From positions 1 through 64,000 of the forward strand of contig JAIBCG010000002.1 in NCBI GenBank assembly GCA_019694295.1: a stretch of DNA of 64,000 bases, read 5' to 3'. A model generated the notes under the pieces. That model was not told the DNA's origin. It ran no database searches and worked only from the letters and a program-made list of their open reading frames with translations. Position numbers and translations under genes: made by a program. Origin of the DNA: Saprospiraceae bacterium (lineage in GTDB: Bacteria > Bacteroidota > Bacteroidia > Chitinophagales > Saprospiraceae). This document shows positions 33,922 through 57,787 of the stretch, one piece after another (within the stretch, counting starts at the first letter, position 1; each line of letters opens with the position of its first letter).

Positions 33922-34312
33922 ATGTAATATTCAGTTGAACCTAAAATTTACGATTGTACGAAGCTTTATTTAACCGTTGCCGTACAACTACGTTGAATGG
34001 TATTGCCTGCAAATTATCATTAGTGTGCCTGTTAATATAACAGAATGCCTTTACGGAATCTACCAAAATTCAAGTTAGGACCTAATATTCAAGCAATAAT
34101 TGAATACTTACTGTATGATAACTTATTGTGGAAATCATGTATCTTCTAATGTAGTTCCTGCTCAATAGAATAGTCTTCGATAAGGCTTTACCATTTACCC
34201 ACCATTTGACGCCATCCACTAACTCGGCTTGTACTGTTACTCACTTGCCAAACTTTAACTGAATAATGCGAATACATTTGTATCGTAGAAAAATTTCAGA
34301 AATTAAAGTAGC
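33922..34312. other. 391-bp gene-free spacer with one hairpin
   Basis: No ORF of note. TTGTACG (33954-33960) pairs perfectly with CGTACAA (33981-33987) around a 20-nt loop; outer ACG/CGT bases can extend it. No T-run follows. The right end has the promoter box of the next gene at 34273. Confidence 0.35.
34273..34280 (+). promoter_or_regulatory. -7 promoter box for the barrel/TANFOR/FnIII unit
   Basis: TACATTTG is an exact TAnnTTTG match, 32 bp before the ATG at 34313. It would serve three genes spanning more than 10 kb. Confidence 0.45.
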
Positions 34313-36139
34313 ATGACCCAGCAGGACCTTAAAAAGAAACAAATATTGCAAAGTGTATTACTGATATGCCTTTGTACAACTATTAATATATCTTTGAAGG
34401 CCGATGGAGCAATACCTAGAAACGGTATTCTCAGTACAAGCTCAATACACTTTTTCTATCCGGTGGATGATACTCTGAAGGTACCCACGGTAGGTAAAAA
34501 GGACTTCGGATTTTCAGGAGGAGCCAGTGTTTTTGCCTCTACTTACAACTCCAACATCCAGAATATCTCTTCCAGTCCATTCAATTATGGTATATCCTTA
34601 GCTACTTCTCTGAAATTTAAGAAAAATTCATTTCCTTTCTCACTCAGTTATAGCAACAACAAGCTCAATGTTTCATATCCATACTTCAGGATCGGATGTG
34701 CACCATCCTATAAATGGATGAAACTGTACCTTGGAAATCAGACGCTGAGTTATAATCGTTACGTTTTTAGTGGTATCAATGTCTTTGGCGTCGGGTTTGA
34801 GATACACCCCGGTTGGTTTTATTTGTCTGCCATAAGTGGCAATCTTGCAAAAAAAATCTTCGTTGATAGTCTCTCCACATCTTATAATAATGTGCGCCCC
34901 AGGTTTTCAGCCAATGGATTTGCAATAAAATCTGGAGTCAAGACCCGATCGTTTCAATTATTATTCACCTATTTTTCAGGTAATGAAGATAAAACTTCCA
35001 TCCGCTATTCGAACCCAAAATATTTCTTGACACCACGTATGGGGAAAGCATTGGGTGCCGAGATGGGTATCAGATTTTCTAAATATGTCAACTTTTCATC
35101 CATTGGCGGTTTAAGTATTTTTACAAGAAATAAAGATGCCGGTAATCTTGACACTTTGTTAAAAGCATCACAGGCACAACCATTGCCCGCATGGGCCAAA
35201 ATAATTGAAGGCAAACCAAATACCACTACACAGATATTTTATGCTTTCGAGAATTCACTTCGATACGAAAATAAAATATTTTCATTAGGCATAAAGCAAA
35301 AACGGATCATGCCTGAGTTTAAGAACCTCGGATTGCGGATTGAGGGAAATGACATTGACCAATATACCATAGAACCCGGGTTTACATTTTGGGATGGTAA
35401 GCTTACGTCAAATATTACCGTAGGTATCCAAAATAATAACCTCTTGTCAAAATCAGCACTCAGCACAAATAGTAAGATCTATGAAGTGTCAGTCAATTAT
35501 GCTGCTAATGAAAATTTGTTCTTGAATGCATCATTTTCCAATTTTGGCATCCAGACCTCATCTACTTCCATAGCATCCGAAGATAGTATTTCTATACGCA
35601 ATGTAAGTAGTAATATAGGCCTGAGTAGCAATTATGTGCTTGAGCAGAATGCAGATATTAATCGTTCACTGAGCTTTAATCTGAATAATCAGCGAACCAC
35701 TGAAATATACGAGAATAGTAAGTTTAACAACTCTGATTTCAATTCTTTTTTTGCAAATCTGGCTTATAGTGTTAGCAAACCACACGGGTTAAACTACAAT
35801 GTAGGCCTTAATTATAGCAAAAGCGGAACATTGCTGGCAGAGTTTAATAATAAGATTCTGGATGTACAAATGTATGGCATGTTTGGCGGTGTCAGTATGA
35901 ATATTTTTCAGAATAAGACAAAAGACAGATCTTTGACCATCGGTGCTGGTACTAACCTCAATTATAGCGGCTTGGCTGGCGGTAAAAAGAGCCTTGCTAC
36001 AGGACTTGGCCTAAATTTAATTTTTGCATTCACCAAAAATATGACATTCACAGCAGGGTACACCCATTCCTCAAATACAATAGAGCATGTGCGACTGCTT
36101 CAAAATAGCTTTAATACCAACATTCAAACAAATTTTTAA
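34313..36139 (+). CDS. predicted outer-membrane beta-barrel protein
   Basis: Exported protein of 608 residues with no named family that I recognise. A signal segment lies at about residues 11-29 after a basic start. The mature protein is a long series of alternating amphipathic strands with aromatic ends (for example FSGGASVFASTYNSN, WFYLSAISGNLAK, HGLNYNVGLNYSKSG), and it ends in Phe, as outer-membrane barrels do. Roughly 20 or more strands would fit. The stop at 36137-36139 is one base from the start of the 2,115-residue protein, so the two are strongly coupled and probably form one complex. Confidence 0.7.
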   Translation: MTQQDLKKKQILQSVLLICLCTTINISLKADGAIPRNGILSTSSIHFFYPVDDTLKVPTVGKKDFGFSGGASVFASTYNSNIQNISSSPFNYGISLATSLKFKKNSFPFSLSYSNNKLNVSYPYFRIGCAPSYKWMKLYLGNQTLSYNRYVFSGINVFGVGFEIHPGWFYLSAISGNLAKKIFVDSLSTSYNNVRPRFSANGFAIKSGVKTRSFQLLFTYFSGNEDKTSIRYSNPKYFLTPRMGKALGAEMGIRFSKYVNFSSIGGLSIFTRNKDAGNLDTLLKASQAQPLPAWAKIIEGKPNTTTQIFYAFENSLRYENKIFSLGIKQKRIMPEFKNLGLRIEGNDIDQYTIEPGFTFWDGKLTSNITVGIQNNNLLSKSALSTNSKIYEVSVNYAANENLFLNASFSNFGIQTSSTSIASEDSISIRNVSSNIGLSSNYVLEQNADINRSLSFNLNNQRTTEIYENSKFNNSDFNSFFANLAYSVSKPHGLNYNVGLNYSKSGTLLAEFNNKILDVQMYGMFGGVSMNIFQNKTKDRSLTIGAGTNLNYSGLAGGKKSLATGLGLNLIFAFTKNMTFTAGYTHSSNTIEHVRLLQNSFNTNIQTNF

Positions 36140-36140
36140 T

Positions 36141-39100
36141 ATGAAAACATCAAATAATCAGACTGTCGGAATTGGGTCCAGTAATTGTAAAGAAGGAGGA
36201 TTTGTTTCAGCTAAAATTACCAAAAATATTTTTTTGGTTGCACGTTTTTTTCTGTCAGCATTGTTCCTCATTTGTATCCAGACAGCTGTTTATAGCCAGA
36301 ATCAATTAAAAATAAATGTACAGGTACAGCCACCATACAGCCCTTTTTTGAATGATTATCTTGGGTTGAAGGACAAAACTGTACTTACTGTTACGAACAC
36401 AACCAGTCAGACCATTCAGTATTATCTCAAAGTTTCGCTTACCAACAACGATAATTTTTCGGCAAAAACCAAGGATGACTACAAACCTGCCACACCTATG
36501 ACCATCCAAGGCGGACAAACAGTTATGATTCAGGCAAGCTCATCTGCCGGTAGCTCATTTAGTGAAGAAAATATTGAAGTGGACTATGGAGATTATACCC
36601 TGAGTGATGTATTGAGAGATGGTGTGTTGCCGGATGGCAAATACAATCTGTGTGTTACAGCTTTTGATTACACTAATGACCAACAAATAAGCAGTAGTGC
36701 CACCGGATGTAAATTAATTAACATCTCATACCTCAATGCACCTCGAATACTGGCATGTGACAATAAATCATTTACACAAACAATGCCTCAGAATATCAAT
36801 CTTAGTTGGTCGCCGGTGACGGGAAATAATCAAAACAAACAGATATTGTATGATTTATACATAGCACCTATAACCGAGGCGGATAATCCACAAGACATCA
36901 TCGAAACGGGAATAGCTACCGGTTCACCAAATCTGATAAAAGTGTCAGGTATCGTGGTTAATGCTTATACTTATTCTGTCAATAAGCCAGCATTGACCAT
37001 TGGCAAATATGCCTGGGCAGTTAAAGCCGCAGTTGCTGATAAATCATTGCCAATAGAAAACGACGGGCTGAGTAATGTCTGCACTTTTGATTACAAACCA
37101 ATGGAAATGAAGTTTAATAATGTGCAGATGAATGTAGGACCTGAATGCAAATGTAAGTCTCAATTACCTAATGGGCTCGACCCCATACAAGGGTCGCCGG
37201 CAGTAGGGCAGATTGTCAATTCCGGTTTTTTGAAAGTGACTTTGACAGCAGTTAGCAAGAGTGACAATGGATATACAGGGACAGGTACAGTACCTTTGCC
37301 TATCCTCAACAATGGTATTGTAAAAGTAAATGTTAGCTTTACAAATATAGATATTAAAAAATCAGGCAACGAATATTACCAAACTTCAGGGATAATAGAA
37401 GCAGTGATGGACGAGAAGGCATCGTTTTTGCCAAAATTTAATCCTATTGATCCGGGAAGTCTAAACCTTGACCCACAACAGATGCAGTCATTGTCATCTT
37501 TTTTTGAAAATTACTCTAATCAACTGATCTCAAAGATTAAAAACTATCCAAATACAATTGCTTACAATTTGCCGATAGGCCTCGATGAAAAAGCCATGAA
37601 TATTGCAATAACAGGCTTGACATTGGCACCCGAGCAGTCTTATTTTGATGCGGTATCAGTATTGGATATTATTGATGGTAATACGAAGGTAGCACTTATA
37701 GGCCAAGGCATCTGTATTGATGCCGGTAGTTTCTGCGGCAATGCAACACTTTCATTGATGGAAGACTTCAATGTACCTAGTATAGGTATAAGCCTGAAAG
37801 GAAATGGTAAAAATGACGGCACATCTATCTCTTTCGATAAAGATGGCTTCAAGAACCTACATATTGCAGCTACCTATACCTTCCCTGACAATAGCCTGGT
37901 AGAAGTAGCAAGCCAAAAACCGGCCGCAGTGACGCTTACATCCGATACCGATTCGGGTTGGAGCGACTGGCTTGCCGAAGTAAAGTTTTCTGAATTTTAT
38001 ATGGCTGGTTTTCCGGATGTTACATTTGGCCCGGATGCTAATGGTACAAAGATAATGTACGACCACAGTGATAAGAGAAATCCGGCGGACATTCCGAGTC
38101 CATATACAAGTGAAGATAATGCCGATGCACCTATTAATACAAATCAGCCTACTTGGCGAGGATTCTACATTCCTTCAGTTGCTATAAAATTGCCACCATC
38201 TCTCACCAATGTCAATGGTAATCCTCTCGTGGTGAAAGCAGAAAAATTGATTTTTGATGGAGGGCTTTCGGGTAATGTTTCAGTTAACAATATTATGAGT
38301 ATCAATGATGGCTCACTAGATGGCTGGTACTATTCCATTGATCAGTTTCAAATTAATTTCTGGAAAAACACCTTTAAGAGTAGCAGTCTGAGTGGCAAAA
38401 TCGTGCTACCGATATCAAGAAAATACGATGATACAAGTAATCAACTTGATTATACCTGTACATTGTCCAAGCCGGCCAACAGTTCATTAAACTATAATTT
38501 TGTGATATCGCCCAAAGATAATATTGCCTTTAATGTATTGTGGGCAAATTGCAAATTCAAGCCGGGCACTAATATTCAGATAACTAAAACAAACGATGGC
38601 AAATTCGTAGCAATGGCCACTTTAAATGGTCAAATGACAATTACATCTAAGATAGATAATCTACCAGATGTCAACATAGCGGACGTTAAGTTTGAGAATT
38701 TGAGATTTCAGAGTCAGAAACCGTATTTTACACCTGGCCAGATAGATGCATGCCTGTTTTCAACAGCTTCGCCGCAGCATTCTATAGCCGGGTTCAGTAT
38801 TAACTTTGACCCTACACCTGGCAAAGGAATATCACTGTATTCGAATGCCAATAATGGTGTACAGCTTGGGCTAAAATTTAACGCCCAGCTCAAGCTAGTA
38901 AAAGATGTTGATTTTGTGCCAAAGGCAGATGTGTCGTTTAATATTTTCGGTAATCTTAAGATGAATGGCACCAGACCGGAATGGGATGGGGTAGGGGCTA
39001 ATATTTCTAAGATTAAGTTTGAAGCCGGTGCTAAAATCGGACCCCTTGGAATCATTGGTGAGATCGCATATTTTAACGACAACAACGGAAGTTATGGATT

Positions 39101-42100
39101 TATGGGTGGCCTCACAATGGATGCTGCCGGTGTAGTGACCATAGGCGCCAAGGCCCAATTTGGCTATTCTGCCAATGAAGGTGGCTTCAATTACTTTTTT
39201 ATCGATGGCATGGTTGACTTCAAGTCAAATGGGATACCCATGGGGCCGGCTTTGGCTATCTATGGTTTTGGAGGAGGCGCTTTTTACAATATGACCATAC
39301 CGCAAGTCAATATGAATGGGGCAAACATCACAGGTTCTCCAGCTTATGTATTTGATCCCAACGACCCACAAGCAGGTGTGTCTATGTCGGGTATTGTATA
39401 TACTCCAAAAAAGGGATTGTTTTCAGTGAAGGCAGCAGTCTTATTTGGCTTGACAGCACGCAATGTACTGGATGCTGACGGAAGTGTCACCATGAATTTT
39501 AACACTAACACCGGAAGTGTTCTGAGTATTGATTTTCAGGCCACCGGCCGATTTATTACAAAGGCCGACGACCCAATACCGATAAAAAATACAGAGTGTA
39601 TGGGCAAATTAACCATATACATGCAGTTGAATTTTGACGAAGCGTCAATTTTATTCCATGCCGACATTAAGGCAGGTGTTCCTACACATACGGATATAAA
39701 CTTATTCTATATTGATGCCGGGATCGATTTCTATGCAGGTCGTTCGGGGTGGTTTGTACATGTAGGCACACCATGGAAAGACGGAAACCTTAAGGGTGGT
39801 ACCCCGATTACACTTACTGTATTTAATAAGCTCAAGTTTTTATCATACTTCGAATGTGGTACTGGTTCAGGTAAAATATTCTATAAGAACACGATAGTAA
39901 GTGGTGTGAATGCTGTTGATCCAATGCCGCCGATACCCAATTATATTTATGATATAATTAATAACAATAACAGATCAGGTGAAAACGGAAATATAGATAA
40001 CTCTGTCAATAGCTTTAGTTTTTCGAAGAATGATTTAAAAGGAGGCCTGGCTTTTGGTGCAAACTTTAGTACTGAAATAAATGTAAACTTTCTGTTATTC
40101 TACCTTGAAGCAAAATTTATGGTTGGGTTCGACCTTGCATTTTATGAATTGCAAAAAGGCGCTATGTGCGTAAATGAAAAGAACGAAAAAATGTTTAAAG
40201 GCGTTAATGGCTTCTATGCAATGGGGCAGGCATATTTTGGTGCAAGCATTGATGTAGGTATTGATATCGACTTATTCTTCTTTTCAGGTAAAATAAGTAT
40301 CATCTCGGCAGGAGTGGCTGCTTATGTCCAGTTTGGAGCTCCTAGCCCATCTTTTGCTACAGGTGCCATTGGCGGACGTTATAGCCTGCTCGGTGGTTTG
40401 ATTGAAGGCCATTTCGGTGTAAAATTCTTCTGGGGTGAAAAATGCTATGAGATTGAAGACGAATCGATTGACTTGATAGCTGAGGTGAATCCTACCGCAG
40501 ATTTTGACAAAGAACATTACCAAACACCGGTAAAAGCCTCGCAGTTGCAGCCTGTCAATCTAGATCCGTATGTGGTTTTTAATTTTGAAATAGACCGTAC
40601 CTTCCTAATCATTGCCAATGTTGATGAAAAAGACCCAGACAATCCGGGTGCTACTTATCGCCAATACAGATATTATCATATATTGCCGGAAGATATAAGT
40701 ATCAATGTATCAGGTGGGCTGATAGAACAAAATGGTGTACCTCTACCTAAGCCTTTGTCAATAAATGACTTTAAAGTAAGTAATGACCATTTTGTGCTTA
40801 AGCTAAAAGAACCCGTAATGTTTAGAAAGGAAACGGATTTTGTTTTTGACATAAAGCTGCCGGTTAGAATTTTTAATCTGAGAGAACGCTCAAAACAACA
40901 AGCCGCTACTTCACAAGGCTACAAAACCGATGCAGAACTCGCAGGAGTTAACAATTTCGTCCGTAATCAATGGGACCTGGCAACAGATGCAAACCTTCAG
41001 AAATATTACGACCAAAGACACGTGCAATTTACAACAGATTGTGGCATCAAATACCTAGAACAATCCTGGATAACGGACATTGATCCCTTGCATCGTTCGC
41101 AAAATAACCCTGCAGGGTACAGTGCGGCATTTAATGAGAAAAATTTGAGAAAGGGAACTTACTTCACGCCTACATATACATATTCTATCAACAAGCCTTA
41201 TGCTCAGCAATTAATATCCAATACGAGCAAAAATAATGTAAAATTGTCATTGGAGCATCCTGAGATAAACCTTAGCCTCGACAATGGTTATTTATCCAAT
41301 GACTTTCTGTGTATCCCACCCGATTTTGTAAATAATTCTGACATAACGCTCAAAATATCTACATTCGAAAAGCGGAATTCCGGCAACACATTCAAATCGT
41401 ACTTGGTGGATGCAGTAGTATCTGCCGATAAACGCAGTATAACTGCAAATCTTGATAAGGATTTTCCAAAGAATAGTTTTGTCATCGTCCAGATGGTACT
41501 CAAAAAACGTACAAACCCGAATAGTAACAATAGACCGGAGTCATCACTTGTGACAAAAAAACTTATAACCAACAATGAGGCAAATGTGTGCACAACCATC
41601 ATGACCAGGACTGCCAACCTCGATGCGAAGTTGAAATCCGCCAGCGAACTTGAGTTATTTAAGTGGTATTTTACAACGGGTAGTTATACCAGTTACCCTG
41701 ATAAAATGGCGGATATGGATATAAAAGTAGATACTGTCACGACAAGGTATAATTTGATAGGCGGAAACAAGGGAATGGTGGCCTCTGCTTCGTTTGAAGC
41801 TGTGGTTTCAACTTATCAATTCAAAGGCAATGAAAAATTTGATTTTCATGATGTGTACGATTATAATCTGAATCAGGTACTGACAGATGGAATCTCGAAG
41901 CCGTTCCCGAAAAAACTGGCCGATGGATATCTGGGATTTGCATTTGACAATGCCTCGCAGACTTTGGTAGATGATTTCCTAAGAACCTACTTTGATAATG
42001 AAATGGTTATGAAACAATTTTTAAAATTGTACCCTGATGATTATTTGCACGATACACCTACGGGTCAGGGCGGCCATGTGAAATTGATGAATCTGTTCAT

Positions 42101-42488
42101 CACACAAAGAATGAAGGATTTGACGAGATGGGAAAATGTAACTAAGGTAGGTGCTGTATTGCCTCCTCTTGATTATCTCCCATCCGAATTGCTTTATAAA
42201 GGTGCAGACTTCACGGGTATGGATATGGGTCAGCTTAATATTAAAAAACAAATCTTATTTTCTGTTTCAAAAAATTCTAGAATCAAAAGTAATCTTGGGG
42301 GACATACTAAGATCATTCCTGCTCATATTATTGGATTAAATGATATTCCGAATTTTAAGCCCGGCAATGGTCCTGTAATATTCCAGGCCTTCATGGCAGA
42401 TATGATGCAAGATTTTAACAATAATATTCTTTCGAAAGTTGCAGGTGCTTTTAACCCGATGATTTTAAACAATAAACAATCCAGATAA
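36141..42488 (+). CDS. giant exported protein with an N-terminal TANFOR-like domain
   Basis: Protein of 2,115 residues. The start at 36141 was chosen over an upstream ATG inside the previous gene, because it gives a signal peptide (hydrophobic core at about 32-47, ending YSQN) after a long polar N-region. Residues about 54-130 resemble the TANFOR domain of Bacteroidota (VQPPYSPFLNDYLG, then tension-type beta strands and GGQTVMIQA). The remainder is a very long series of beta-rich, low-Cys stretches with no T9SS sorting domain or lipobox. Coupled by 1-nt spacers to the barrel gene before and the FnIII gene after. Location (periplasm or surface) and partners are inferred. Confidence 0.75.
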   Translation: MKTSNNQTVGIGSSNCKEGGFVSAKITKNIFLVARFFLSALFLICIQTAVYSQNQLKINVQVQPPYSPFLNDYLGLKDKTVLTVTNTTSQTIQYYLKVSLTNNDNFSAKTKDDYKPATPMTIQGGQTVMIQASSSAGSSFSEENIEVDYGDYTLSDVLRDGVLPDGKYNLCVTAFDYTNDQQISSSATGCKLINISYLNAPRILACDNKSFTQTMPQNINLSWSPVTGNNQNKQILYDLYIAPITEADNPQDIIETGIATGSPNLIKVSGIVVNAYTYSVNKPALTIGKYAWAVKAAVADKSLPIENDGLSNVCTFDYKPMEMKFNNVQMNVGPECKCKSQLPNGLDPIQGSPAVGQIVNSGFLKVTLTAVSKSDNGYTGTGTVPLPILNNGIVKVNVSFTNIDIKKSGNEYYQTSGIIEAVMDEKASFLPKFNPIDPGSLNLDPQQMQSLSSFFENYSNQLISKIKNYPNTIAYNLPIGLDEKAMNIAITGLTLAPEQSYFDAVSVLDIIDGNTKVALIGQGICIDAGSFCGNATLSLMEDFNVPSIGISLKGNGKNDGTSISFDKDGFKNLHIAATYTFPDNSLVEVASQKPAAVTLTSDTDSGWSDWLAEVKFSEFYMAGFPDVTFGPDANGTKIMYDHSDKRNPADIPSPYTSEDNADAPINTNQPTWRGFYIPSVAIKLPPSLTNVNGNPLVVKAEKLIFDGGLSGNVSVNNIMSINDGSLDGWYYSIDQFQINFWKNTFKSSSLSGKIVLPISRKYDDTSNQLDYTCTLSKPANSSLNYNFVISPKDNIAFNVLWANCKFKPGTNIQITKTNDGKFVAMATLNGQMTITSKIDNLPDVNIADVKFENLRFQSQKPYFTPGQIDACLFSTASPQHSIAGFSINFDPTPGKGISLYSNANNGVQLGLKFNAQLKLVKDVDFVPKADVSFNIFGNLKMNGTRPEWDGVGANISKIKFEAGAKIGPLGIIGEIAYFNDNNGSYGFMGGLTMDAAGVVTIGAKAQFGYSANEGGFNYFFIDGMVDFKSNGIPMGPALAIYGFGGGAFYNMTIPQVNMNGANITGSPAYVFDPNDPQAGVSMSGIVYTPKKGLFSVKAAVLFGLTARNVLDADGSVTMNFNTNTGSVLSIDFQATGRFITKADDPIPIKNTECMGKLTIYMQLNFDEASILFHADIKAGVPTHTDINLFYIDAGIDFYAGRSGWFVHVGTPWKDGNLKGGTPITLTVFNKLKFLSYFECGTGSGKIFYKNTIVSGVNAVDPMPPIPNYIYDIINNNNRSGENGNIDNSVNSFSFSKNDLKGGLAFGANFSTEINVNFLLFYLEAKFMVGFDLAFYELQKGAMCVNEKNEKMFKGVNGFYAMGQAYFGASIDVGIDIDLFFFSGKISIISAGVAAYVQFGAPSPSFATGAIGGRYSLLGGLIEGHFGVKFFWGEKCYEIEDESIDLIAEVNPTADFDKEHYQTPVKASQLQPVNLDPYVVFNFEIDRTFLIIANVDEKDPDNPGATYRQYRYYHILPEDISINVSGGLIEQNGVPLPKPLSINDFKVSNDHFVLKLKEPVMFRKETDFVFDIKLPVRIFNLRERSKQQAATSQGYKTDAELAGVNNFVRNQWDLATDANLQKYYDQRHVQFTTDCGIKYLEQSWITDIDPLHRSQNNPAGYSAAFNEKNLRKGTYFTPTYTYSINKPYAQQLISNTSKNNVKLSLEHPEINLSLDNGYLSNDFLCIPPDFVNNSDITLKISTFEKRNSGNTFKSYLVDAVVSADKRSITANLDKDFPKNSFVIVQMVLKKRTNPNSNNRPESSLVTKKLITNNEANVCTTIMTRTANLDAKLKSASELELFKWYFTTGSYTSYPDKMADMDIKVDTVTTRYNLIGGNKGMVASASFEAVVSTYQFKGNEKFDFHDVYDYNLNQVLTDGISKPFPKKLADGYLGFAFDNASQTLVDDFLRTYFDNEMVMKQFLKLYPDDYLHDTPTGQGGHVKLMNLFITQRMKDLTRWENVTKVGAVLPPLDYLPSELLYKGADFTGMDMGQLNIKKQILFSVSKNSRIKSNLGGHTKIIPAHIIGLNDIPNFKPGNGPVIFQAFMADMMQDFNNNILSKVAGAFNPMILNNKQSR

Positions 42489-42489
42489 G

Positions 42490-44559
42490 ATGAAGAACCT
42501 TAAAATAGTATTCTGTACGATGTTGTTTTTTATAGCAACTCTTTCGTTCGGCCAGCAGGCTGAAGTGCCTAAGATTAGCTTGAAATATGCTATAATGGCC
42601 AAAACATTCAAAGATAGTATAGTGCTGCGCTGGGCACCCGAATCACCAAATGCCCTCCCTGCCCATATTGATGCAGGAGTGTGGGTCGAAAAACTCGTGG
42701 TAAGTGGAAAATTTCCATACAAACTGGGTAAATGGCAAAGAATTACGCCTACACCCATTTTGCCCCAACCACTCGAAGCGTTTAATACCGAAGCTTGTAA
42801 AAAAGACGAATATACCATGCTCGGTGCACAGCTCTTGTATGGCAAACTTCCTTCTATTCCCACACATACAGGGTTCAAAGGGGTGAAAGATCAGACCGAG
42901 ATGCTAACCAACTTATTCTCATTGGCAATGCTCGGGTGTGATTATTCGCCGAAGGCAGCTCAAATGATGGGAATGCGGCAGGTAGTCAAAGTATCTATAG
43001 CTGAAAATGAAAAAATCTTCTTCAGAATTTATTCAGCATTTGATAATCCGATGTTTCAAATAGATACAGGTATGACTTTTACTACCTATGGCGAATGGGG
43101 TGCCCAAACAGCACCAAAATTTCTGACCGCAAAGTCACAGGAAAAAATGGTAGAACTCGTCTGGCCTTGCAACAGGACACTCAACCGTTGGTCGGGCTTT
43201 AATATCGAACGGTCTGGCGATGGAAAAAATTTCACCCGACTCAATAAAAAACCATTTATCATTATGAGTCCAGAACTTGACATTAATATGTATTACAGAG
43301 ATAGTGTAAGCAATTATGTGAAGTATTATTACCGCATTCAGGCATTGGATCCTTTTGGAGATGTCACGGATTTTAGTGAGTCAGTCAGCTGTTATGGTAG
43401 TGATAAAACACCGCCAGGCCGATTAGTACTTGAAGAAAACCATGGTGACGGCAGTGGCATTACATTGAAGTGGCGTTTTGAAAATAATCAACCTGCCGTT
43501 GATTTAGATCATTTTGTTGTGAAGACAGGTCCCGGTGTTGATTACATACATGATACTTTGAAAATTCTGCCCAACTCAGCTGCCTCCTTTGAGTATCCTG
43601 TGAGAGCAAAAGTCAAATCTACCTACTTCGAAGTAGCCGCAGTAGATACAGCCGGCAATTATTCATCGTCCAATCCGGTCAGATATTTTATTCCTGACAC
43701 CGAGCCACCCAAAGCACCTGTTGGGTTCAAAGCAACTATTGACACTGCCGGCATTGTACGATTAAGCTGGCAACTCGACACAACAGATGAGATACAGGGT
43801 TACAGAGTATTCAGAAAGAATGACCCGAAGCACGAATTTACTTGTATGCAGCAAGGATTTTTGAAAGAAACTGTGTTTACAGATACGCTTGCTCTCAATA
43901 CTTTAACCAAAGACATTTATTATGCAGTGGCCACCATTGATATGAGCTATAATATGAGCAAGATGACGGAGACCATCAAGCTAATAAAACCTGATAAAGC
44001 TAAGCCAGTACCTCCACAAATCACTCATTACAAACTGCGTGACAGAAGCGTTACACTACAATGGACCCAAAGCCCAAGTGATGATGTCGATTATTACCAA
44101 TTGTATCGAACAGACGAGAAAGGTAGTACAGTGTTGGTTGCTAAAAACCTGAGAGCCGACCAATTGGAATATACGGATTCAGCCCTGACTGCCAAAGCCA
44201 GATATACGTATTATCTCAATTCAACAGACAAGTCAGGTCTTACATCTGAAAACTCGTTCCCACTGGATATTCTTGCATATACCAATAACCCCGGAAAAAT
44301 AATTGCCCTCACATGGTTATCAGAGAAAGAAAAATTTGGATTCAAATGGACAGACCCAAACCCTAAAGCCGCCTTTTATATCATTTACAAAGATACCGGC
44401 AGTGGCCTGCAACAGTACAAAAGTATCGACTCGGATCAAAGCAAATTCACTGAAGAAACCAATAAACAAACTAAGGTTAGGTTCGGCCTACAGGCAGTTT
44501 ATCAAAATCAGCAAAAGTCAGGCATTTATTCACTCGAATGGTATAAACCTGAACATTGA
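42490..44559 (+). CDS. exported protein with fibronectin type III-like domains
   Basis: Protein of 689 residues. A signal peptide covers about residues 1-21 (ending TLSFGQQ). The N-terminal 220 residues have no recognisable domain. From about residue 220 there are about four FnIII-like units, with strand pairs such as VELVWPCN, ITLKWRFENN, VRLSWQLDTTD and VTLQWTQSPSDD, spaced some 90-100 residues apart. No T9SS C-terminal domain, lipobox or membrane anchor is visible. It begins one base after the stop of the 2,115-residue protein and so is expected to be made with it. Possibly a structural or recognition subunit. Confidence 0.78.
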   Translation: MKNLKIVFCTMLFFIATLSFGQQAEVPKISLKYAIMAKTFKDSIVLRWAPESPNALPAHIDAGVWVEKLVVSGKFPYKLGKWQRITPTPILPQPLEAFNTEACKKDEYTMLGAQLLYGKLPSIPTHTGFKGVKDQTEMLTNLFSLAMLGCDYSPKAAQMMGMRQVVKVSIAENEKIFFRIYSAFDNPMFQIDTGMTFTTYGEWGAQTAPKFLTAKSQEKMVELVWPCNRTLNRWSGFNIERSGDGKNFTRLNKKPFIIMSPELDINMYYRDSVSNYVKYYYRIQALDPFGDVTDFSESVSCYGSDKTPPGRLVLEENHGDGSGITLKWRFENNQPAVDLDHFVVKTGPGVDYIHDTLKILPNSAASFEYPVRAKVKSTYFEVAAVDTAGNYSSSNPVRYFIPDTEPPKAPVGFKATIDTAGIVRLSWQLDTTDEIQGYRVFRKNDPKHEFTCMQQGFLKETVFTDTLALNTLTKDIYYAVATIDMSYNMSKMTETIKLIKPDKAKPVPPQITHYKLRDRSVTLQWTQSPSDDVDYYQLYRTDEKGSTVLVAKNLRADQLEYTDSALTAKARYTYYLNSTDKSGLTSENSFPLDILAYTNNPGKIIALTWLSEKEKFGFKWTDPNPKAAFYIIYKDTGSGLQQYKSIDSDQSKFTEETNKQTKVRFGLQAVYQNQQKSGIYSLEWYKPEH

Positions 44560-44591: not shown

Positions 44592-45917
44592 ATGAAAAAT
44601 GTATTATTGTTTTGCGCCTTGTGTCTTCTACACCCATCAATATTCTCACAGCAGATATTTTTCGAGGATTTTGATACGTACACCTTGGGTCCTATAGGTG
44701 ATCAAAATCCAGAATGGGTTAATCTTTCGAATGCTCAGGTAAATGTTAAAATTGATGGGGGCAATTTTGTAAATTGCTCAGGCTCTGATAATCAAAATGC
44801 GTATCTGAGTTTTGAATCAGCTGACTTTGAAGAGTGCAAAAGAATAGTTTCTACTAGCTATTCTAATTTTGTCCTTGACATGAAGGCTACTTTGAATTCA
44901 GGTATTAGCGTAAAAATTGTGGATACAGACGATTTTGCTTTCGAATACCTTTATGAGTTTGACGGTTCTGGGAACTTTGAATTTGCATTCATACTAGATT
45001 TTGTATATCACCAGATTCAGGTAATCAGGAATGGAGTAACAGTAAAAACAGATAACTTACCCGCTGGTTTTAACTCTATTGATGAGATTCACTTTAATAA
45101 TTCCACCGGCAAATTTAAACTAGGCTGTGTTGAACTGTCTGATGTCACAGATGTAGATGGTGATGGTTATCTGGCATCAAATGACTGTGATGACAATGAT
45201 GCCAACATCAATCCTGGTAAGGCAGAAATAGCCTACAATGGCAAAGATGACGACTGCAATCCTGCCACACTCGACGATGACCTCGATCAGGACGGCTACC
45301 CAAAGGCAACCGACTGCAACGATGACGATGCCGACATCAACCCTGGTAAGGCAGAAATAGCCTACAATGGCAAAGATGACGACTGCAATCCTGCCACACT
45401 CGACGATGACCTCGACCAGGACGGTTACCCAAAGGCAACCGACTGCAACGATGACGATGCCGACATCAACCCTGGTAAGGCAGAAATAGACTACAATGGC
45501 AAAGATGACGACTGCAATCCTGCCACACTCGACGATGACCTCGACCAGGACGGTTACCCAAAGGCAACCGACTGCAACGATGACGATGCTAATATCAACC
45601 CCGGAGCAGCAGAAATACCCGGAAATAGCATTGATGAAAATTGTGACGGAATATTATTGGCAGAGTTTCATCAGAGTACCAAACTTTTTGTAGAATTAAT
45701 CCCAAACCCGACCAGAGATTACCTTGAAATAAAATCCAGTTCAAAAATTGATTATGTTAAAATTTATAACATTGCCGGGTCAGAGGTGAGTTCTTACAAA
45801 ATAAATGAATCAAACATAATTTATCTAAAAGATATAAGAGAGGGCATCTATTTCATACATGCATTTTCATCCGAATCTAGTGGATCTTATATTGGAAAAT
45901 TTGTTGTAAATTATTGA
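44592..45917 (+). CDS. secreted T9SS protein with metal-binding-motif repeats
   Basis: Protein of 441 residues. A signal peptide covers about residues 1-19 (ending PSIFSQQ). A beta-sandwich of about 170 residues follows, then a run of acidic repeats of the MopE/putative metal-binding type: DVDGDGYLASNDCDDNDANI first, then 43-residue units with DQDGYPKATDCNDDDADI and NGKDDDCNP. Each carries paired Asp and Cys residues expected to bind calcium and form disulfides. The end is a T9SS sorting domain (LIPNPTRDYLEIKSS, from about residue 370). It starts 32 bp after the FnIII gene and could be in the same transcript. Confidence 0.88.
   Translation: MKNVLLFCALCLLHPSIFSQQIFFEDFDTYTLGPIGDQNPEWVNLSNAQVNVKIDGGNFVNCSGSDNQNAYLSFESADFEECKRIVSTSYSNFVLDMKATLNSGISVKIVDTDDFAFEYLYEFDGSGNFEFAFILDFVYHQIQVIRNGVTVKTDNLPAGFNSIDEIHFNNSTGKFKLGCVELSDVTDVDGDGYLASNDCDDNDANINPGKAEIAYNGKDDDCNPATLDDDLDQDGYPKATDCNDDDADINPGKAEIAYNGKDDDCNPATLDDDLDQDGYPKATDCNDDDADINPGKAEIDYNGKDDDCNPATLDDDLDQDGYPKATDCNDDDANINPGAAEIPGNSIDENCDGILLAEFHQSTKLFVELIPNPTRDYLEIKSSSKIDYVKIYNIAGSEVSSYKINESNIIYLKDIREGIYFIHAFSSESSGSYIGKFVVNY
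45216..45602 (+). repeat. three tandem 129-bp coding repeats
   Basis: Units start at 45216, 45345 and 45474, exactly 129 bp (43 residues) apart, and a shortened, diverged fourth begins at 45603. Units 1 and 2 differ at two of 129 bases; unit 3 differs at a few, mainly at its end. The repeats look richer in G and C than the flanking gene. They are within the T9SS protein gene and encode the acidic metal-binding motif. A diverged precursor unit lies before 45216. Confidence 0.9.
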
Positions 45918-46248: not shown

Positions 46249-49200
46249 TTGAATGTTTTGAAAAAGTTAACCATCCTTATTTATTTCTTTTCGTTTGTGG
46301 TTTGGAATTTGAAGGGTCAGACCTTGAGTTTCAAAACCTATAATAGTAATTCAGGTCTTTCTCAGAATAGTATTTACTCCATTACACAGGATAAAGAAGG
46401 ATTTTTATGGTTTGGCTCACAGGCAGGGCTCAACCGCTTTGACGGAAATGAGTTCAAACTATTCGTTCCCAGAATAGTGACCAATCATAAGGTCATGACT
46501 GATTTTTCCAAGATGATAACTGCCCTTCACAGAGATGCTACCAATTTTCTGTGGGTGGGCACAACCAATGAACTCCTGATTTACGATGCAGTTAAAAATA
46601 AATGGTACACACCGGAGGAAAAATATCCTGGATTTTATATTGCACCTCTGGCTTGGGTTGTAGCTGTTACCGAAGATGCTGGCGGCAAACTATGGGTCAG
46701 CACCCGTAAGGCAGGATTGTATTGCTACGACAAAATCAAAAAGAAGATGATTGTCCTGCCAAAGCAAATAGTACAGGCAAAACCGGAAATTAAACATTGT
46801 CGCTTTGATAATGATCATATATGTACGGCCAGAGATAATGTTATCTATTTGTTGAATGATACTTCGGTGCAGTTAATTAATACAGACAAGCTTCTCCAAT
46901 CAAATGGTAATATTGTAACCGCAGTCGAATCGGTCAATGGTGATGTTTGGTTCATTGCCAACGGCAAATCAATTTATTCATATAATCTTGGGAGCAGTAA
47001 GTTGACTCGCCACACCTTAAATTTTGACAACAAGCAATATCTTAAAGATTTAAGCAGCCTTTATTTCTCAGATGACAATACCTTATGGATAAGCTCAAGA
47101 ACATCAGGGCTGGTCAGGTACAATATTATTACTTCAGAAGCAGATTATGCCAAGGCTGGTAATGAGGAGAATGCATTGAAGAAGAATTTTATTTTAAGCA
47201 TTTTTCAATCAGAAGACGGCCTAATATGGGTAGGTACAAGCGGAGGTGGCGTGTCAAAATGTGAAGTAAATAAAGCCGGCTTTCAGCTATATCATGTAGA
47301 AAATAAGGGTAGTCCGGAAGAGAGTTATGACAATATGATACTAAGTGCTTACACGGATGATGAAACGGAGTTTTATATGGGTACAAGCTACGCCGGCTTA
47401 TTAAAATACAATATTAGAACAAAACAATTTCACTACTTTGCACCATTTACCAGTTCTAATAATGTGCCACAGTCTAACAACATTTATTCAGTCATCAAAG
47501 GTGATAAAACCTTGCTTTGGCTTGCTACCTGGGGCGGATTGTATAGTTTTGACAAACTCACGCACAGATTTAAAGGCTATTTTGACAAAAAAAATGAATT
47601 TACGCGAGAGCTCAATTGTGCCATCAAACTTAAGTTAAGTAACAAAATCCTGATTTGTAGCTCAAAAGGCATTCCTTTATTGTTTGATACCGACAAAAAG
47701 ATATTTGAAAAATGTAAAGACACAGGACAATACCTGCGTAATAATATCATCAGAGTGCGTTATGCAGAAGAAAAAGAGAATGGTGATGTGTATCTGGCTA
47801 CCGAAAACAACGGTCTGGTCAGGTACAATTACATCAATGGTCGATTTACTGAATTTCCTTCCATCCGCAGGATATCGGGTGTTTGTCGGCATTTTATTCT
47901 TGATCAGGGCAAAATATGGGCAGGTACTGAGGATGGCTTAGTATATCTTGATCCTGTTACCGGAAAAGTATTACAACACCTCACGACCGAAAATGGATTG
48001 TCAGATAACGTCATCTATGGTGTATTGATGGATGATTCGAAGCAGTTGTGGGTATCTACCAACAAGGGAATTTGTAAAATAGATCAAAAGCTGTCAAAGG
48101 TTACTATATATTCGATGGAGGATGGCTTGCAGGATCTTGAATTCAATACCGCAGTAGCTTACAAATTTACCAACGGAAACCTATTGTTTGGTGGTATCAA
48201 CGGATTTAATATCATCAAACCGGTTGAATTAAAGAAAATCAATTTTGTGCCAACCCCGTTATTGGTTGATTTAAAAGTGCTGAATATTCCATATTCTGAT
48301 AGTGTACCTTATCCTTTTCTGAAGAATATTTCTTTGAAATTCAACCAGAATTTTATCACGATGGGATTTCAAAGTCCGGTTTTTACGCAAATCAACAGAA
48401 TAAACTACAGGTATATGTTGTCAAATCTGCACGAAACCTGGATAAACAACGGTTCAAGAAATTATGTCAATTTTACACAACTCAAACCTGGCAACTATAC
48501 CTTTAAGGTACAAGCCTTCGACGACAATAAAGTTTATTCCGGCATAAATGAAATATATATAACAATCCATGCTCCGTGGTATTATAATTTCTGGTTTCTA
48601 TTCTTTAGTTCAATGGCCATCGTTACATCTTCTCTTCTCATTATTTCGGCAAGAATAAAGGCATTGAAAGTAAGGAAATCACTACTACACCAAAAAGCTG
48701 TAGCCGAAATGCAATCACTGCGCCTACAAATGAATCCGCATTTTATCTTTAACTCGCTCAATAGTATCAATAGTTATATCGTTGATAACAAAACCTTACA
48801 GGCAAGTGATTATTTGTCTAAGTTTTCAAGGCTTATGAGGCTTATTCTTGAAAATTCGCGACACGAAACCATAACTCTGAGCAAAGAACTTGAGTATGTA
48901 AGCTTGTATCTTTTGATTGAATCACTTCGGTTTGCAAAGGCATTTGAATACGAAATTCATGTTGACGAATCGGTAGATGCAGAAAATCTAATAGTGCCAC
49001 CTCTGTTTATTCAGCCTTTTCTGGAAAATTCTATCTGGCATGGATTGATGCCCCGTAAGGGTACCCGAACATTGAACCTAGACCTGACTCAATCTTCAGA
49101 CATACTTACTGTTGTGGTCTCCGATAATGGCGTTGGTAGAGAATATTCAGCAAAACTTAAGGAAACAAAAATAACGCTTAAAAATTCACATGGAATGGAT

Positions 49201-49320
49201 ATTACAAAAAATCGCATCATGTACCACAATCCAAAAAATACTGTCCAGATCGAAGACTTGTATAATGCTTTAGGCGAAGCAGCAGGTACCAGAGTCGTCA
49301 TTAGTATTCACTACATTTAG
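46249..49320 (+). CDS. LytS-type sensor kinase with a Reg_prop beta-propeller sensor
   Basis: Membrane sensor of 1,023 residues. A signal/anchor segment lies at about residues 7-22. A large periplasmic part (about 25-700) has propeller repeats of the two-component sensor type (QDKEGFLWFGSQAGLNRFDG, then EDGLIWVGTSGGGV), and a Y_Y_Y-like domain follows near 710-775 (YRYMLSNLHETWI, then LKPGNYTFKVQA). One membrane helix is near 780-805. The cytoplasmic kinase is the His_kinase family with NPHFIFNSL (His near residue 831) and HATPase motifs PFLENSIWHG and DNGVG. The start must be TTG at 46249 or 46258; TGA precedes in frame. It pairs with the next gene. Confidence 0.9.
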   Translation: MNVLKKLTILIYFFSFVVWNLKGQTLSFKTYNSNSGLSQNSIYSITQDKEGFLWFGSQAGLNRFDGNEFKLFVPRIVTNHKVMTDFSKMITALHRDATNFLWVGTTNELLIYDAVKNKWYTPEEKYPGFYIAPLAWVVAVTEDAGGKLWVSTRKAGLYCYDKIKKKMIVLPKQIVQAKPEIKHCRFDNDHICTARDNVIYLLNDTSVQLINTDKLLQSNGNIVTAVESVNGDVWFIANGKSIYSYNLGSSKLTRHTLNFDNKQYLKDLSSLYFSDDNTLWISSRTSGLVRYNIITSEADYAKAGNEENALKKNFILSIFQSEDGLIWVGTSGGGVSKCEVNKAGFQLYHVENKGSPEESYDNMILSAYTDDETEFYMGTSYAGLLKYNIRTKQFHYFAPFTSSNNVPQSNNIYSVIKGDKTLLWLATWGGLYSFDKLTHRFKGYFDKKNEFTRELNCAIKLKLSNKILICSSKGIPLLFDTDKKIFEKCKDTGQYLRNNIIRVRYAEEKENGDVYLATENNGLVRYNYINGRFTEFPSIRRISGVCRHFILDQGKIWAGTEDGLVYLDPVTGKVLQHLTTENGLSDNVIYGVLMDDSKQLWVSTNKGICKIDQKLSKVTIYSMEDGLQDLEFNTAVAYKFTNGNLLFGGINGFNIIKPVELKKINFVPTPLLVDLKVLNIPYSDSVPYPFLKNISLKFNQNFITMGFQSPVFTQINRINYRYMLSNLHETWINNGSRNYVNFTQLKPGNYTFKVQAFDDNKVYSGINEIYITIHAPWYYNFWFLFFSSMAIVTSSLLIISARIKALKVRKSLLHQKAVAEMQSLRLQMNPHFIFNSLNSINSYIVDNKTLQASDYLSKFSRLMRLILENSRHETITLSKELEYVSLYLLIESLRFAKAFEYEIHVDESVDAENLIVPPLFIQPFLENSIWHGLMPRKGTRTLNLDLTQSSDILTVVVSDNGVGREYSAKLKETKITLKNSHGMDITKNRIMYHNPKNTVQIEDLYNALGEAAGTRVVISIHYI

Positions 49321-49354: not shown

Positions 49355-50107
49355 ATGAATAAACATATATATACAGCTGTATTAATCGATGATGAAGAGC
49401 ATTGTATCAAAACACTTAAATGGAACCTGACCGAATTCTGTCCCGAAATAGAAATAATAGGGGAGGCCAACACAGCACGTGACGGATATTCAATCATCAA
49501 TCAACTCAATCCCGACTTGATATTTTTAGATGTTGAAATGCCTGATATGAGTGGTTTCGATATGTTGGCCAAATTCGATAAAATCAACTTTAAAGTCATT
49601 TTTACCACAGCCTACAACGAATATGCCATAAAGGCCATCAAACTCAATGCCATCGACTACCTGTTGAAACCAATAGACAAGGATGAATTAAAAGCAGCCA
49701 TTGTTAAACTGCACACTGCAAACAGTGATGTATTGCACAGCAAAATCCAAAACCTGAAATTTAACCTGCATGTCAGCCCCGAACAACAACGCATTACTGT
49801 AAGTACTATCGATGGCGTACAGTTTTTTGACCTCAAGGCAATAACCTGTCTGGAAGCTGACAGTAATTATACATATTTGCACTTCAACGATGGCTCAAAA
49901 ATTCTTTCTTCCAGAACACTCAAAGAGTACGAAGAAGTTCTGCCTCCGGATAGTTTTTTCAGATGCCATAATTCTTTCATCGTCAATTTTAGGTTTATCA
50001 AAAAATATACAAAAGGCGAAGGTGGCGAAATAGAACTCGTCACAGGTCAGAAAATAGCGGTCTCGAGAAGAAAAAAACAGGAATTCATCGACTGGATAAC
50101 GATGTGA
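49355..50107 (+). CDS. LytTR-family response regulator
   Basis: Two-component response regulator of 250 residues. The receiver domain has the acidic pair IDDEE at the N-terminus, phosphoacceptor Asp59 in IFLDVEMPD, and the conserved Lys in YLLKPID near residue 109. A LytTR DNA-binding domain follows (about 150-250), with ITCLEADSNYTYLHF, the RCHNSFIVNFRFI segment and SRRKKQEF. It lies 34 bp after the sensor and is almost surely its partner. Targets are unknown; a neighbouring T9SS gene or the surface cluster is possible. Repeat copy B begins directly after its stop. Confidence 0.93.
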   Translation: MNKHIYTAVLIDDEEHCIKTLKWNLTEFCPEIEIIGEANTARDGYSIINQLNPDLIFLDVEMPDMSGFDMLAKFDKINFKVIFTTAYNEYAIKAIKLNAIDYLLKPIDKDELKAAIVKLHTANSDVLHSKIQNLKFNLHVSPEQQRITVSTIDGVQFFDLKAITCLEADSNYTYLHFNDGSKILSSRTLKEYEEVLPPDSFFRCHNSFIVNFRFIKKYTKGEGGEIELVTGQKIAVSRRKKQEFIDWITM

Positions 50108-56696: not shown

Positions 56697-56746
56697 CAAA
56701 TTAAATGCATTTTGCAATTTTTTTAATAACCAAAATTATTTGTGTT

Positions 56747-57787
56747 ATGAAAATAACACTACGATGTGTAATCCCACTGGTAGTTTTGCTTTTTTGCTTG
56801 ACACCAACAGTAATTAAATCACAAGATAGTGATTTACATTTTACTCAGTATGGTATGTCCCCTATTAATTTAAATCCGGGACTGACAGGAATCTTTAATG
56901 GTGACATACGGTACACCGGAAATTACAGAAGTCAGTGGGCCTCTGTACCTGTCGGATATTCCACTGCATCTTTTGCTTATGATCAGAAGATCTACAATGC
57001 CAAACTCAAAAACGGTTTGTTCGGGGTGGGCGGTATCTTCAATTACGACCAGGCCGGAGCATCGGCACTCAGGTCATTGCAGCTGATGTTGGCAGGATCA
57101 TATACGCAGCGTATTTCGCAGCGCAATTTTCTGACGCTGGGCGCATCTGCAGGTGTTGCACAACGTGCATTCAAGGATGGTGACCTCACCTGGGACGAGC
57201 AGTATATTGGTAATCAATACAATCCTAATAACCCGATTACAGAGTCTTTCGCCAGCAAAGCAAAGATTTATCCTGACTTTGGTCTCGGTATCAACTGGCA
57301 TTTTCAAGTACCGAATTCCAAGCGTACACAGTTTGATTTGGGAGCTTCATTGTATCACCTGCATTCGCCAAATACTTCATTTTACGACGAGCAAGATGTG
57401 CAGATAAAGCCACGACTTAGTATTCAACTCGGCTCTTCCTTTAAAATACTTCCCAAATTTGATGTAATCATCAATGCCAATTACTATGATCAGGGAGCTA
57501 ATAATCAGACAATAGCCGGTGGTGGACTCAGATACCATTTTGATGACCGAATAGGTCGCGAGATGGCATTGCAGGTAGGTGGTGAATACCGATTTTTGTT
57601 TAAAGATGCCTGGGCACCGGTAGTAACATTCTATTACCATCAATGGAAAGTAGGTGTCAGTTATGATGTCAATGTATCGAAATTTGACCGTGCTACCCGA
57701 AATCAGGGTGGCTTGGAAGTTGGTATCATGTATATCGTCACTAAGGTAAAACCATTGCCAGTATTCAAATCATGCCCAATTTTCTGA
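56747..57787 (+). CDS. PorP/SprF-family type IX secretion membrane protein
   Basis: Outer-membrane protein of 346 residues of the PorP/SprF family. I chose the ATG at 56747 over that at 56705, because it gives a normal signal peptide (MKITLRCVIPLVVLLF, ending KSQD). The mature N-terminus HFTQYGMSPINLNPGLTGIF is a family hallmark, and strands such as RYTGNYRSQWASVPVGY follow. PorP/SprF proteins anchor or deliver the partner surface protein. The cognate cargo is probably the CHU_C protein two genes downstream. The next gene follows after 45 bp in the same direction. Confidence 0.92.
   Translation: MKITLRCVIPLVVLLFCLTPTVIKSQDSDLHFTQYGMSPINLNPGLTGIFNGDIRYTGNYRSQWASVPVGYSTASFAYDQKIYNAKLKNGLFGVGGIFNYDQAGASALRSLQLMLAGSYTQRISQRNFLTLGASAGVAQRAFKDGDLTWDEQYIGNQYNPNNPITESFASKAKIYPDFGLGINWHFQVPNSKRTQFDLGASLYHLHSPNTSFYDEQDVQIKPRLSIQLGSSFKILPKFDVIINANYYDQGANNQTIAGGGLRYHFDDRIGREMALQVGGEYRFLFKDAWAPVVTFYYHQWKVGVSYDVNVSKFDRATRNQGGLEVGIMYIVTKVKPLPVFKSCPIF

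What the first reader, a model, noticed from the sequence alone, without database searches (positions are those of the whole stretch)
34313..44559. Coupled barrel / 2,115-residue TANFOR-like giant / FnIII unit with no recognised export signal for the large proteins
Seen: three exported proteins in one direction with 1-nt spacers, one promoter box at 34273, and a clear barrel-like first member ending in Phe. Neither large protein has a T9SS sorting domain, lipobox or membrane anchor, unlike other surface proteins nearby. Known: TANFOR is a Bacteroidota N-terminal domain without a defined function. Inference: the barrel may be a dedicated outer-membrane partner, making this an undescribed export or surface assembly. 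This is the best candidate for a new system in the window.
Basis: partly seen in the sequence, partly recalled or inferred. Interest (0 to 1): 0.55.

Follow-up and report, generated by a model that had tools for sequence, protein, structure and literature searches.

The report
Giant protein with dedicated membrane barrel
A giant exported bacterial protein is inherited together with its own outer-membrane barrel and a fibronectin-type partner, and in some relatives the giant's front domain is fused to the barrel, which suggests a dedicated but untested way of getting such proteins onto or out of the cell surface.

Summary
Three same-strand genes with 1-nt spacers encode a 608-aa outer-membrane barrel (B), a 2,115-aa TANFOR-like giant (T) and a 689-aa FnIII-array protein (F). 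T and F have Sec-like signals but no T9SS CTD, lipobox or anchor.

TANFOR proteins are known as a polymorphic-toxin class with an unproven outer-membrane route (Jana 2020). New here: a barrel family with no Pfam family of its own, modelled with about 24 strands; its coupling to TANFOR proteins, some without the giant's core; and natural N-TANFOR/C-barrel fusions in seven genomes. The window's own C-terminus matches no toxin family; a relative's unit (L076) carries a TANFOR protein ending in an AHH nuclease.

Most likely the barrel is the dedicated outer-membrane partner that handles the giant through its N-terminal domain, like two-partner secretion or SprF shuttles in logic but belonging to neither family. 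Whether the giant passes through the barrel, is anchored by it after T9SS export, or stays periplasmic is undetermined.

The parts
34273..34280 (+). promoter-like box TACATTTG (Bacteroidota TANNTTTG type; motif recalled)
   Evidence: the pattern is common in the window (95 seen, 75 expected), so weak
34313..36139 (+). B: 608-aa outer-membrane beta-barrel, about 24 strands, C-terminal Phe; no Pfam family of its own
36141..42488 (+). T: 2,115-aa giant with Sec-like signal, TANFOR-like N-terminus, conserved beta-rich core, variable C-terminus
36240..37199 (+). TANFOR-like N-terminal region of T (own profile envelope; TIGR02542 matches 36303-36701)
37578..40508 (+). core of T, conserved to the GxKC(G) motif; a separate ORF in other loci; AlphaFold: long antiparallel strands, overall shape uncertain
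40512..42485 (+). variable C-terminal region of T, no Pfam match
42490..44559 (+). F: 689-aa exported FnIII-array protein
44592..45917 (+). probable fourth gene of the transcription unit: MopE-type metal-binding repeats plus T9SS type A CTD; clear homologues only in the two closest loci

Best explanation
B, T and F form one inherited outer-membrane unit. Shown: conserved adjacency, hydrophobic N-terminal signals without a C-terminal T9SS signal, a large predicted barrel, coupling of B to TANFOR proteins including ones without the core, and natural TANFOR-barrel fusions. Inferred: all three reach the periplasm by Sec; B inserts as a large dedicated barrel; the constant N-terminal TANFOR domain of T, not a C-terminal signal, is what B (or a TANFOR domain fused to B) recognises at the outer membrane; T is then passed to, or held at, the cell surface with F as an accessory. 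The logic is that of two-partner secretion (N-proximal recognition domain on a giant exoprotein plus a cognate barrel) or of SprF-type shuttles, built from unrelated parts. In the window's copy the cargo looks like a surface protein; the L076 unit, whose TANFOR protein ends in an AHH nuclease, suggests that the same route can carry toxins.
For: Co-occurrence in 198 genomes: T 37, B 46, F 41; T-and-B 35, all three 31; 41 of 49 T places have B and 37 have F within 15 kb on the same strand, 47 have either. In 41 inspected loci (window plus 40 chosen for hits) T is in 41, B in 38, F in 40, all three in 37, on one strand, 29 with B first and 8 in the order T-F-B. TIGR02542 hits occur in 10 of 316 phylum genomes, all 10 among the 115 with B (p 3e-5); in 8 of the 10 they lie within about 11 kb of B (positions compared by eye). 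B sits beside TANFOR proteins without the core (L093, L097, L100). N-TANFOR/C-barrel fusions: L110, L112-L116, L121, with TANFOR also on a core-bearing giant in L110, L112, L115. B model pLDDT 81.7, 24 strands of 8 or more residues. Distances of B, TANFOR, F and core correlate (r 0.67-0.80, 34 loci, 0 of 1000 shuffles reach any); swapping partners between loci of one genome lowers B-TANFOR Pearson r in 1998 of 1998 cases. L076: B, core, F, TANFOR-AHH protein and a 218-aa gene in a row.
Against: No localisation, interaction or secretion data. The same swap test by rank correlation is weaker (12 of 500 swaps reach the observed rho). Among the cleaned loci B-TANFOR (0.776) is not higher than TANFOR-core (0.784) or F-core (0.800), so correlation shows joint inheritance, not specific B-TANFOR contact. 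SprA is present in every genome with a B match (115 of 115; 244 of 316 overall), so T9SS dependence is not excluded. An N-terminal TANFOR domain fused to a barrel could be a periplasmic plug rather than an export signal. Thirteen of 64 B places have neither T nor F nearby, some on short contigs.
Confidence: 0.5

Rival explanations
1. T9SS substrate with a dedicated anchor: T leaves through SprA by an unrecognised signal and B then holds it on the surface, as SprF/PorP barrels hold type B CTD proteins.
For: Every genome with a B match has SprA (115 of 115 against 244 of 316). Jana et al. found T9SS substrates enriched near TANFOR genes and hypothesised T9SS export. The fourth gene has a type A CTD. 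A true PorP/SprF lies in the window. PorP-like barrels are proposed to anchor type B substrates (PMC9143113, passages) and cognate shuttles are needed for secretion of two tested substrates (PMC12618676, abstract).
Against: The SprA association is confounded by clade (195 of 198 genomes of this order have it). No type A or B CTD family among 39 C-terminal regions at E<=0.01 or 17 TANFOR proteins at E<=0.001 (seven proteins are in both scans). C-termini are variable while the N-terminus is constant. B does not match PF11751, which detects the real PorP/SprF at 124.9 bits; about 24 modelled strands against 14.
Confidence: 0.3
2. The giant is periplasmic: TANFOR docks on the periplasmic face of B, a pore for an unknown substrate, and T and F are a periplasmic scaffold.
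For: In the fusions TANFOR precedes the first barrel strand, a place normally periplasmic or in the lumen (topology by general knowledge). No surface signal on T or F.
Against: One TANFOR protein in such a unit ends in an AHH nuclease (L076) and one in a HINT-like start (L090; motif recalled), which makes little sense in the periplasm; others carry FnIII or carboxypeptidase-regulatory-like domains. The variable C-terminus resembles surface or secreted proteins (inference).
Confidence: 0.15
3. Ordinary TANFOR polymorphic toxin (Jana class) with incidental neighbours.
For: TANFOR-like N-terminus; FnIII neighbours were already reported as enriched (PMC7073777 Table 1); L076 shows a toxin-bearing member.
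Against: The window's C-terminus matches no Pfam family, and the next listed ORFs (100 aa or more) are F and the MopE protein, not an immunity-like gene. B is a conserved, sometimes fused partner, not incidental.
Confidence: 0.05

Closest known systems
TANFOR polymorphic toxins of Bacteroidetes (Jana, Salomon, Bosis 2020, PMC7073777; parts 1-3 of 6 and keyword passages read)
   Same: large Sec-exported proteins with an N-terminal TANFOR region, variable C-terminus, FnIII neighbours
   Different: the words barrel and porin do not occur in that main text; the window's TANFOR match is below the curated cut-off and no toxin domain is found
Two-partner secretion / CdiB-CdiA (type Vb; PMC5422565, passages read)
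   Same: giant exoprotein with an N-proximal constant domain after the signal, cognate barrel gene in the same operon, polymorphic C-termini in part of the family; single-chain passenger-barrel forms exist in type V
   Different: no Pfam match at all in the window's B or T, so no POTRA, TpsB or TPS-domain match; about 24 modelled strands, not 16; TANFOR looks Ig/FnIII-like (inference from an fn3 match in L110, and a weak PDB match); an added F protein
SprB-SprF / PorP-type shuttles of T9SS (PMC9143113 passages, PMC12618676 abstract)
   Same: giant surface protein encoded beside its own outer-membrane barrel in Bacteroidota
   Different: those barrels are 14-stranded FadL-type and bind type B CTDs; here no PF11751 match and no CTD
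Large barrels FimD/PapC usher and MtrB
   Same: nearest large solved barrels to the model: MtrB Z 18.3 over 458 residues, rmsd 6.2; FimD Z 15.8 over 393 residues, rmsd 4.4
   Different: TM-scores about 0.4, sequence identity 8-12%, and ordinary porins score Z 15-17; general barrel resemblance, not family membership

Membership tests
TANFOR (TIGR02542) | score at or above the curated cut-off (67 bits) | tested here: not met
   32.3 bits, E 8.3e-8; 37.8 bits in the genome scan. In 316 phylum genomes no hit reaches the cut-off
TANFOR (TIGR02542) | N-terminal position after a Sec signal in a large protein | tested here: met
   match at 55-187 after a hydrophobic signal
TANFOR polymorphic toxin class | C-terminal toxin domain in the protein or the next gene, with immunity gene for antibacterial ones | tested here: inconclusive
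   no Pfam match in the window giant; next gene is FnIII; an unknown toxin fold is not excluded
T9SS substrate | type A or type B C-terminal domain | tested here: not met
   B, T, F: none at E<=1 in Pfam and NCBIfam; the neighbour at 44592 does match
PorP/SprF | PF11751 match | tested here: not met
   no Pfam family at E<=1 for the window barrel; not among the families of 38 members at E<=0.1; positive control 56705-57787 scores 124.9 bits
PorP/SprF | 14-stranded FadL-type barrel | tested here: not met
   24 strands of 8 or more residues in the predicted model; FadL rows appear in the structure list at Z 14.4 over 229-238 residues, no better than other porins
Two-partner secretion | TpsB/Omp85 transporter with POTRA domains and 16-stranded barrel | tested here: not met
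   no Pfam family at E<=1; about 24 modelled strands and only 63 residues, signal included, before the first one
Two-partner secretion | cognate adjacent genes, giant partner with constant N-proximal domain | tested here: met
Two-partner secretion | translocation of the giant through the barrel | not testable with these tools
   needs genetics and localisation
Chaperone-usher | usher family membership | tested here: inconclusive
   no sequence match; structural resemblance not above ordinary porins
Outer-membrane beta-barrel | antiparallel barrel with export signal and C-terminal aromatic | tested here: met
   model pLDDT 81.7, pTM 0.72, aligns to many barrels at Z 14-18; Phe at the end; hydrophobic N-terminus in 36 of 38; single members weakly match generic porin and OMP barrel models

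The most novel reading that the evidence does not exclude
A two-partner-like export route special to Bacteroidota and close relatives: the TANFOR domain is an N-terminal outer-membrane export signal read by a new family of about 24-stranded barrels, which carry giant surface proteins and toxins to the outside without a T9SS C-terminal signal; TANFOR-barrel fusions are its single-chain form. This would answer how the TANFOR toxins of Jana et al. leave the cell.
Probability: 0.3. Interest if true: 0.85.

Novelty: new variant of a known kind. Interest (0 to 1): 0.6.

Why it matters
TANFOR proteins were proposed in 2020 as polymorphic toxins with an open question, how they cross the outer membrane without a recognised T9SS signal. 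A dedicated, sometimes fused barrel makes that question directly testable by deleting one gene. If the barrel is the exporter, it would be a new outer-membrane protein route and a new large pore family; if it is an anchor, it extends the SprF principle to a second barrel family.

Tried and rejected
Toxin reading of the window's C-terminus: not supported, no match. The AHH matches are one and the same protein, the TANFOR giant of L076; I had first guessed L074, which is negative. Specific B-TANFOR co-evolution: first seen as r 0.73 against 0.17 for B-F (rho 0.63 and 0.04), but in the 34 of 43 loci left after dropping fused or weak B, weak TANFOR, truncated or divergent F and loci without a good core, all pairs are alike (0.67-0.80); I therefore claim only joint inheritance. 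T9SS dependence by presence of SprA: useless within the order (195 of 198), suggestive but clade-confounded in the phylum. Core as a membrane barrel: strands are strongly two-faced and the search lists LptD, SlpA, porins and ApoB100, at TM-scores of 0.3 or less and large rmsd; global confidence is low (pTM 0.51) and the four stand-alone cores checked do not end in Phe, Tyr or Trp; left open. PDB sequence searches with barrel, giant and core gave nothing useful. The barrel family is not wholly without relatives in Pfam: of 38 members, one match each at E 8e-6 to 1.6e-5 to Porin_4, OMP_b-brl_3 and OMP_b-brl. Absence from print rests on these searches: 'TANFOR' (1,070 papers, mostly the name Tanford, 20 listed), 'TANFOR domain' and 'T_forsyth_147', one paper each, type IX plus polymorphic toxin plus Bacteroidetes (listing of 4), two-partner secretion plus Bacteroidetes (10 of 38 listed) and a six-term search with no hit; only open-licence PMC papers are covered, no preprints, and no supplements were opened.

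Rows dropped before counts: the distance counts leave out 10 weak or fragmentary F rows (G044:C41, G130:C44 twice, G153, G144, G103, G060 twice, G068, G140), while the presence counts keep all genomes listed; further pieces of the same giants were merged into one place. One search's 115 genomes at E<=1e-10 include distant 800-aa barrel relatives in another setting (L108, L109), so 115 is an upper bound for this system. Loci L052-L111 were chosen because they had hits; L112-L123 because the barrel hit lay in a long frame or was split, so 6 fusions of 12 there is not a rate.
Full report
What is there. Three genes on the + strand, 34313-36139, 36141-42488 and 42490-44559, are separated by single bases. 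They encode a 608-aa barrel (B), a 2,115-aa giant (T) and a 689-aa FnIII protein (F). A fourth gene, 44592-45917, follows after 32 bases and carries MopE-type metal-binding repeats and a T9SS type A C-terminal domain. B matches no Pfam or NCBIfam family at E<=1; T matches only TIGR02542 (TANFOR), residues 55-187, 32.3 bits, below the curated 67; F matches fn3 above its cut-off. All three have a hydrophobic N-terminus and no lipobox; across the families, judged by hydropathy and not by SignalP, hydrophobic N-termini are found in 36 of 38 B, 42 of 42 T and 38 of 40 F, and lipobox-like motifs in 2, 0 and 1. So the lack of a lipid anchor is a family trait, and so is the lack of a T9SS signal: none in 39 C-terminal regions of T (E<=0.01), 40 F (E<=0.001) or 38 B (E<=0.1).

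Is the unit real? Searching 198 genomes of the same order with each protein gave T in 37, B in 46 and F in 41. T and B share 35 genomes, T and F 33, all three 31; Fisher p-values are 8e-27, 1e-25 and 3e-21 for T-B, T-F and B-F, not corrected for phylogeny. Of 49 T places, 41 have B and 37 have F within 15 kb on the same strand, 47 have at least one, 31 both. I then read 40 loci chosen because they had hits: with the window, T is in 41 of 41 (some only by profile), B in 38, F in 40, all three in 37, always on one strand; 29 have B first (26 as B-T-F) and eight have T-F-B. The window's own genome has a second unit on contig C117: barrel 614 aa, giant 3,259 aa, FnIII 718 aa (locus L052).

Anatomy of the giant. 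Aligning 43 giants or giant pieces shows a conserved N-terminus and core and a variable C-terminus. The core, about residues 480-1456 in the window, ends at a GxKC(G) motif; in L076, L078, L080 and L090 it is a separate 1,093-1,208-aa protein with its own hydrophobic N-terminus, ending just after that motif, with a separate TANFOR giant in L076, L080 and L090. Other units have TANFOR giants without the core, for example L093, L097 and L100. In the order the core occurs in 33 of 198 genomes, 29 with B and 30 with F. C-terminal regions: of 39 scanned, one matches the AHH nuclease family and one, below cut-off, fn3; of 17 whole or partial TANFOR proteins, seven of them also in the first scan, six match fn3, four a carboxypeptidase-regulatory-like domain, one RCC1 repeats and one AHH. 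The AHH protein is the same in both scans: the TANFOR giant of L076, encoded after B, core and F and followed by an overlapping 218-aa gene, the position where an immunity gene would lie (inference). The L090 giant ends in a HINT-like start (seen in the sequence; family name recalled). The window's own C-terminus resembles chiefly its two closest relatives (38 and 36% identity; 17% or less to the others).

The barrel. AlphaFold gives pLDDT 81.7 and pTM 0.72 with 24 strands of eight or more residues. The nearest solved structures are large barrels, MtrB (Z 18.3, 458 residues) and FimD (Z 15.8, 393 residues, rmsd 4.4), but ordinary porins score almost as high and TM-scores are near 0.4, so this shows a big barrel, not membership. 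Of 38 family members, single ones match generic porin or OMP-barrel models at E 8e-6 to 1.6e-5; there is no model for the family itself. PorP/SprF, the T9SS shuttle family, is not met by sequence: a genuine member in the same window, 56705-57787, scores 124.9 bits, the barrel none. PorV and PorP barrels are 14-stranded (PMC9143113, passages).

The link between TANFOR and the barrel. Searching 316 genomes of the phylum, the barrel profile finds 115 (an upper bound, because distant 800-aa relatives are included). TIGR02542 finds 10, all of them among the 115 (p 3e-5), and in eight of the ten the hit lies within about 11 kb of a barrel (positions compared by eye); G393 and G432 are the two exceptions. 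The strongest sign is fusion: in L110, L112, L113, L114, L115, L116 and L121 one open frame of 863-1,016 aa has TANFOR at its N-terminus and the barrel at its C-terminus. These come from seven genomes in five families of the phylum outside the window's class (handles). L112-L123 were fetched because their barrel hits lay in long or split frames, so this is not a frequency. In L110, L112 and L115 a second TANFOR domain sits on a core-bearing giant next to F.

Co-evolution. Over 43 loci, B-TANFOR distances correlate at r 0.73 and every one of 1,998 swaps of partners within a genome lowers it; by rank the effect is weaker, rho 0.63 with 12 of 500 swaps reaching it. B-F looked unrelated (r 0.17), but in a cleaned set of 34 loci all pairs of B, TANFOR, F and core correlate at 0.67-0.80, each above all 1,000 shuffles. 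The unit is inherited together; a special B-TANFOR contact is not shown by this.

The core's fold. The model (pLDDT 76.9, pTM 0.51) is a run of long antiparallel strands, many with one hydrophobic face. Structure searches list LptD, SlpA, porins and ApoB100 at low TM-scores. I do not assign a fold.

How it most likely works. Constant N-terminus, variable C-terminus, no C-terminal signal, a conserved large barrel, and a domain that can be fused to that barrel point to recognition of T by its TANFOR domain at the outer membrane. Two versions remain: T passes through B, or T leaves by T9SS and is held by B. All 115 genomes with a barrel match have SprA against 244 of 316 overall, but at least one whole family lacks SprA in the listing, and within the order nearly every genome has it, so this does not decide. 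A third, periplasmic, version is possible because TANFOR in the fusions precedes the first barrel strand.

What is known. Jana et al. 2020 (PMC7073777; I read parts 1-3 of 6 and keyword passages) described TANFOR proteins as polymorphic toxins, reported FnIII and T9SS-substrate neighbours and hypothesised T9SS export. The words barrel and porin do not occur in its main text. The literature searches made found no other paper naming the domain. Two-partner secretion (PMC5422565, passages) is the closest logic, but no family match of any kind is found in B and the modelled strand number differs.

Verdict. The claim of a new export system is plausible, not shown.

Noticed in passing
window 46249-49320 and 49355-50107: Propeller-type LytS-like sensor kinase and LytTR regulator downstream of the unit. 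Homologues at E<=1e-10 appear in 16 and 10 of the 61 loci then searched, window included, in L053, L054 and L055 close to the unit; possible regulator, no base rate measured.
   Followed up: partly
window 56705-57787 and 57833-60283: A true PorP/SprF (PF11751, 124.9 bits) followed by a PD40/TPR protein, a PorE-like arrangement by recall.
   Followed up: no
window 44592-45917: MopE-type metal-binding repeats with T9SS type A CTD directly after the unit; strong homologues only in L053 and L054 and a weak one, E 1e-6, in L082.
   Followed up: partly
L076:3726-17995: A unit of barrel, stand-alone core, FnIII protein, TANFOR protein ending in an AHH nuclease domain, and an overlapping 218-aa gene that could be its immunity gene.
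   Followed up: partly
L108:9499-11952 and L109:7919-10351: Distant 810-817-aa barrel relatives with an N-terminal stretch before the barrel match sit beside a gene for a CHASE2-guanylate cyclase protein: an outer-membrane barrel beside a signalling enzyme.
   Followed up: partly
L094:8607-11066, L096:8784-11243, L097:8546-10993: Barrels of one family (f25) carry a C-terminal extension of about 250 residues after the barrel.
   Followed up: no
L052:5369-15148: Second unit in the window's own genome with a 3,259-aa giant and a divergent, split core match.
   Followed up: partly
L113:3-11478: Three TANFOR genes in a row on the minus strand; the first to be read is the TANFOR-barrel fusion.
   Followed up: no
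316 genomes of the phylum: TIGR02542 reaches its curated cut-off in none of 316 genomes, while a broader TANFOR profile found 55 proteins in the loci then held: the published model covers a small part of the family.
   Followed up: partly
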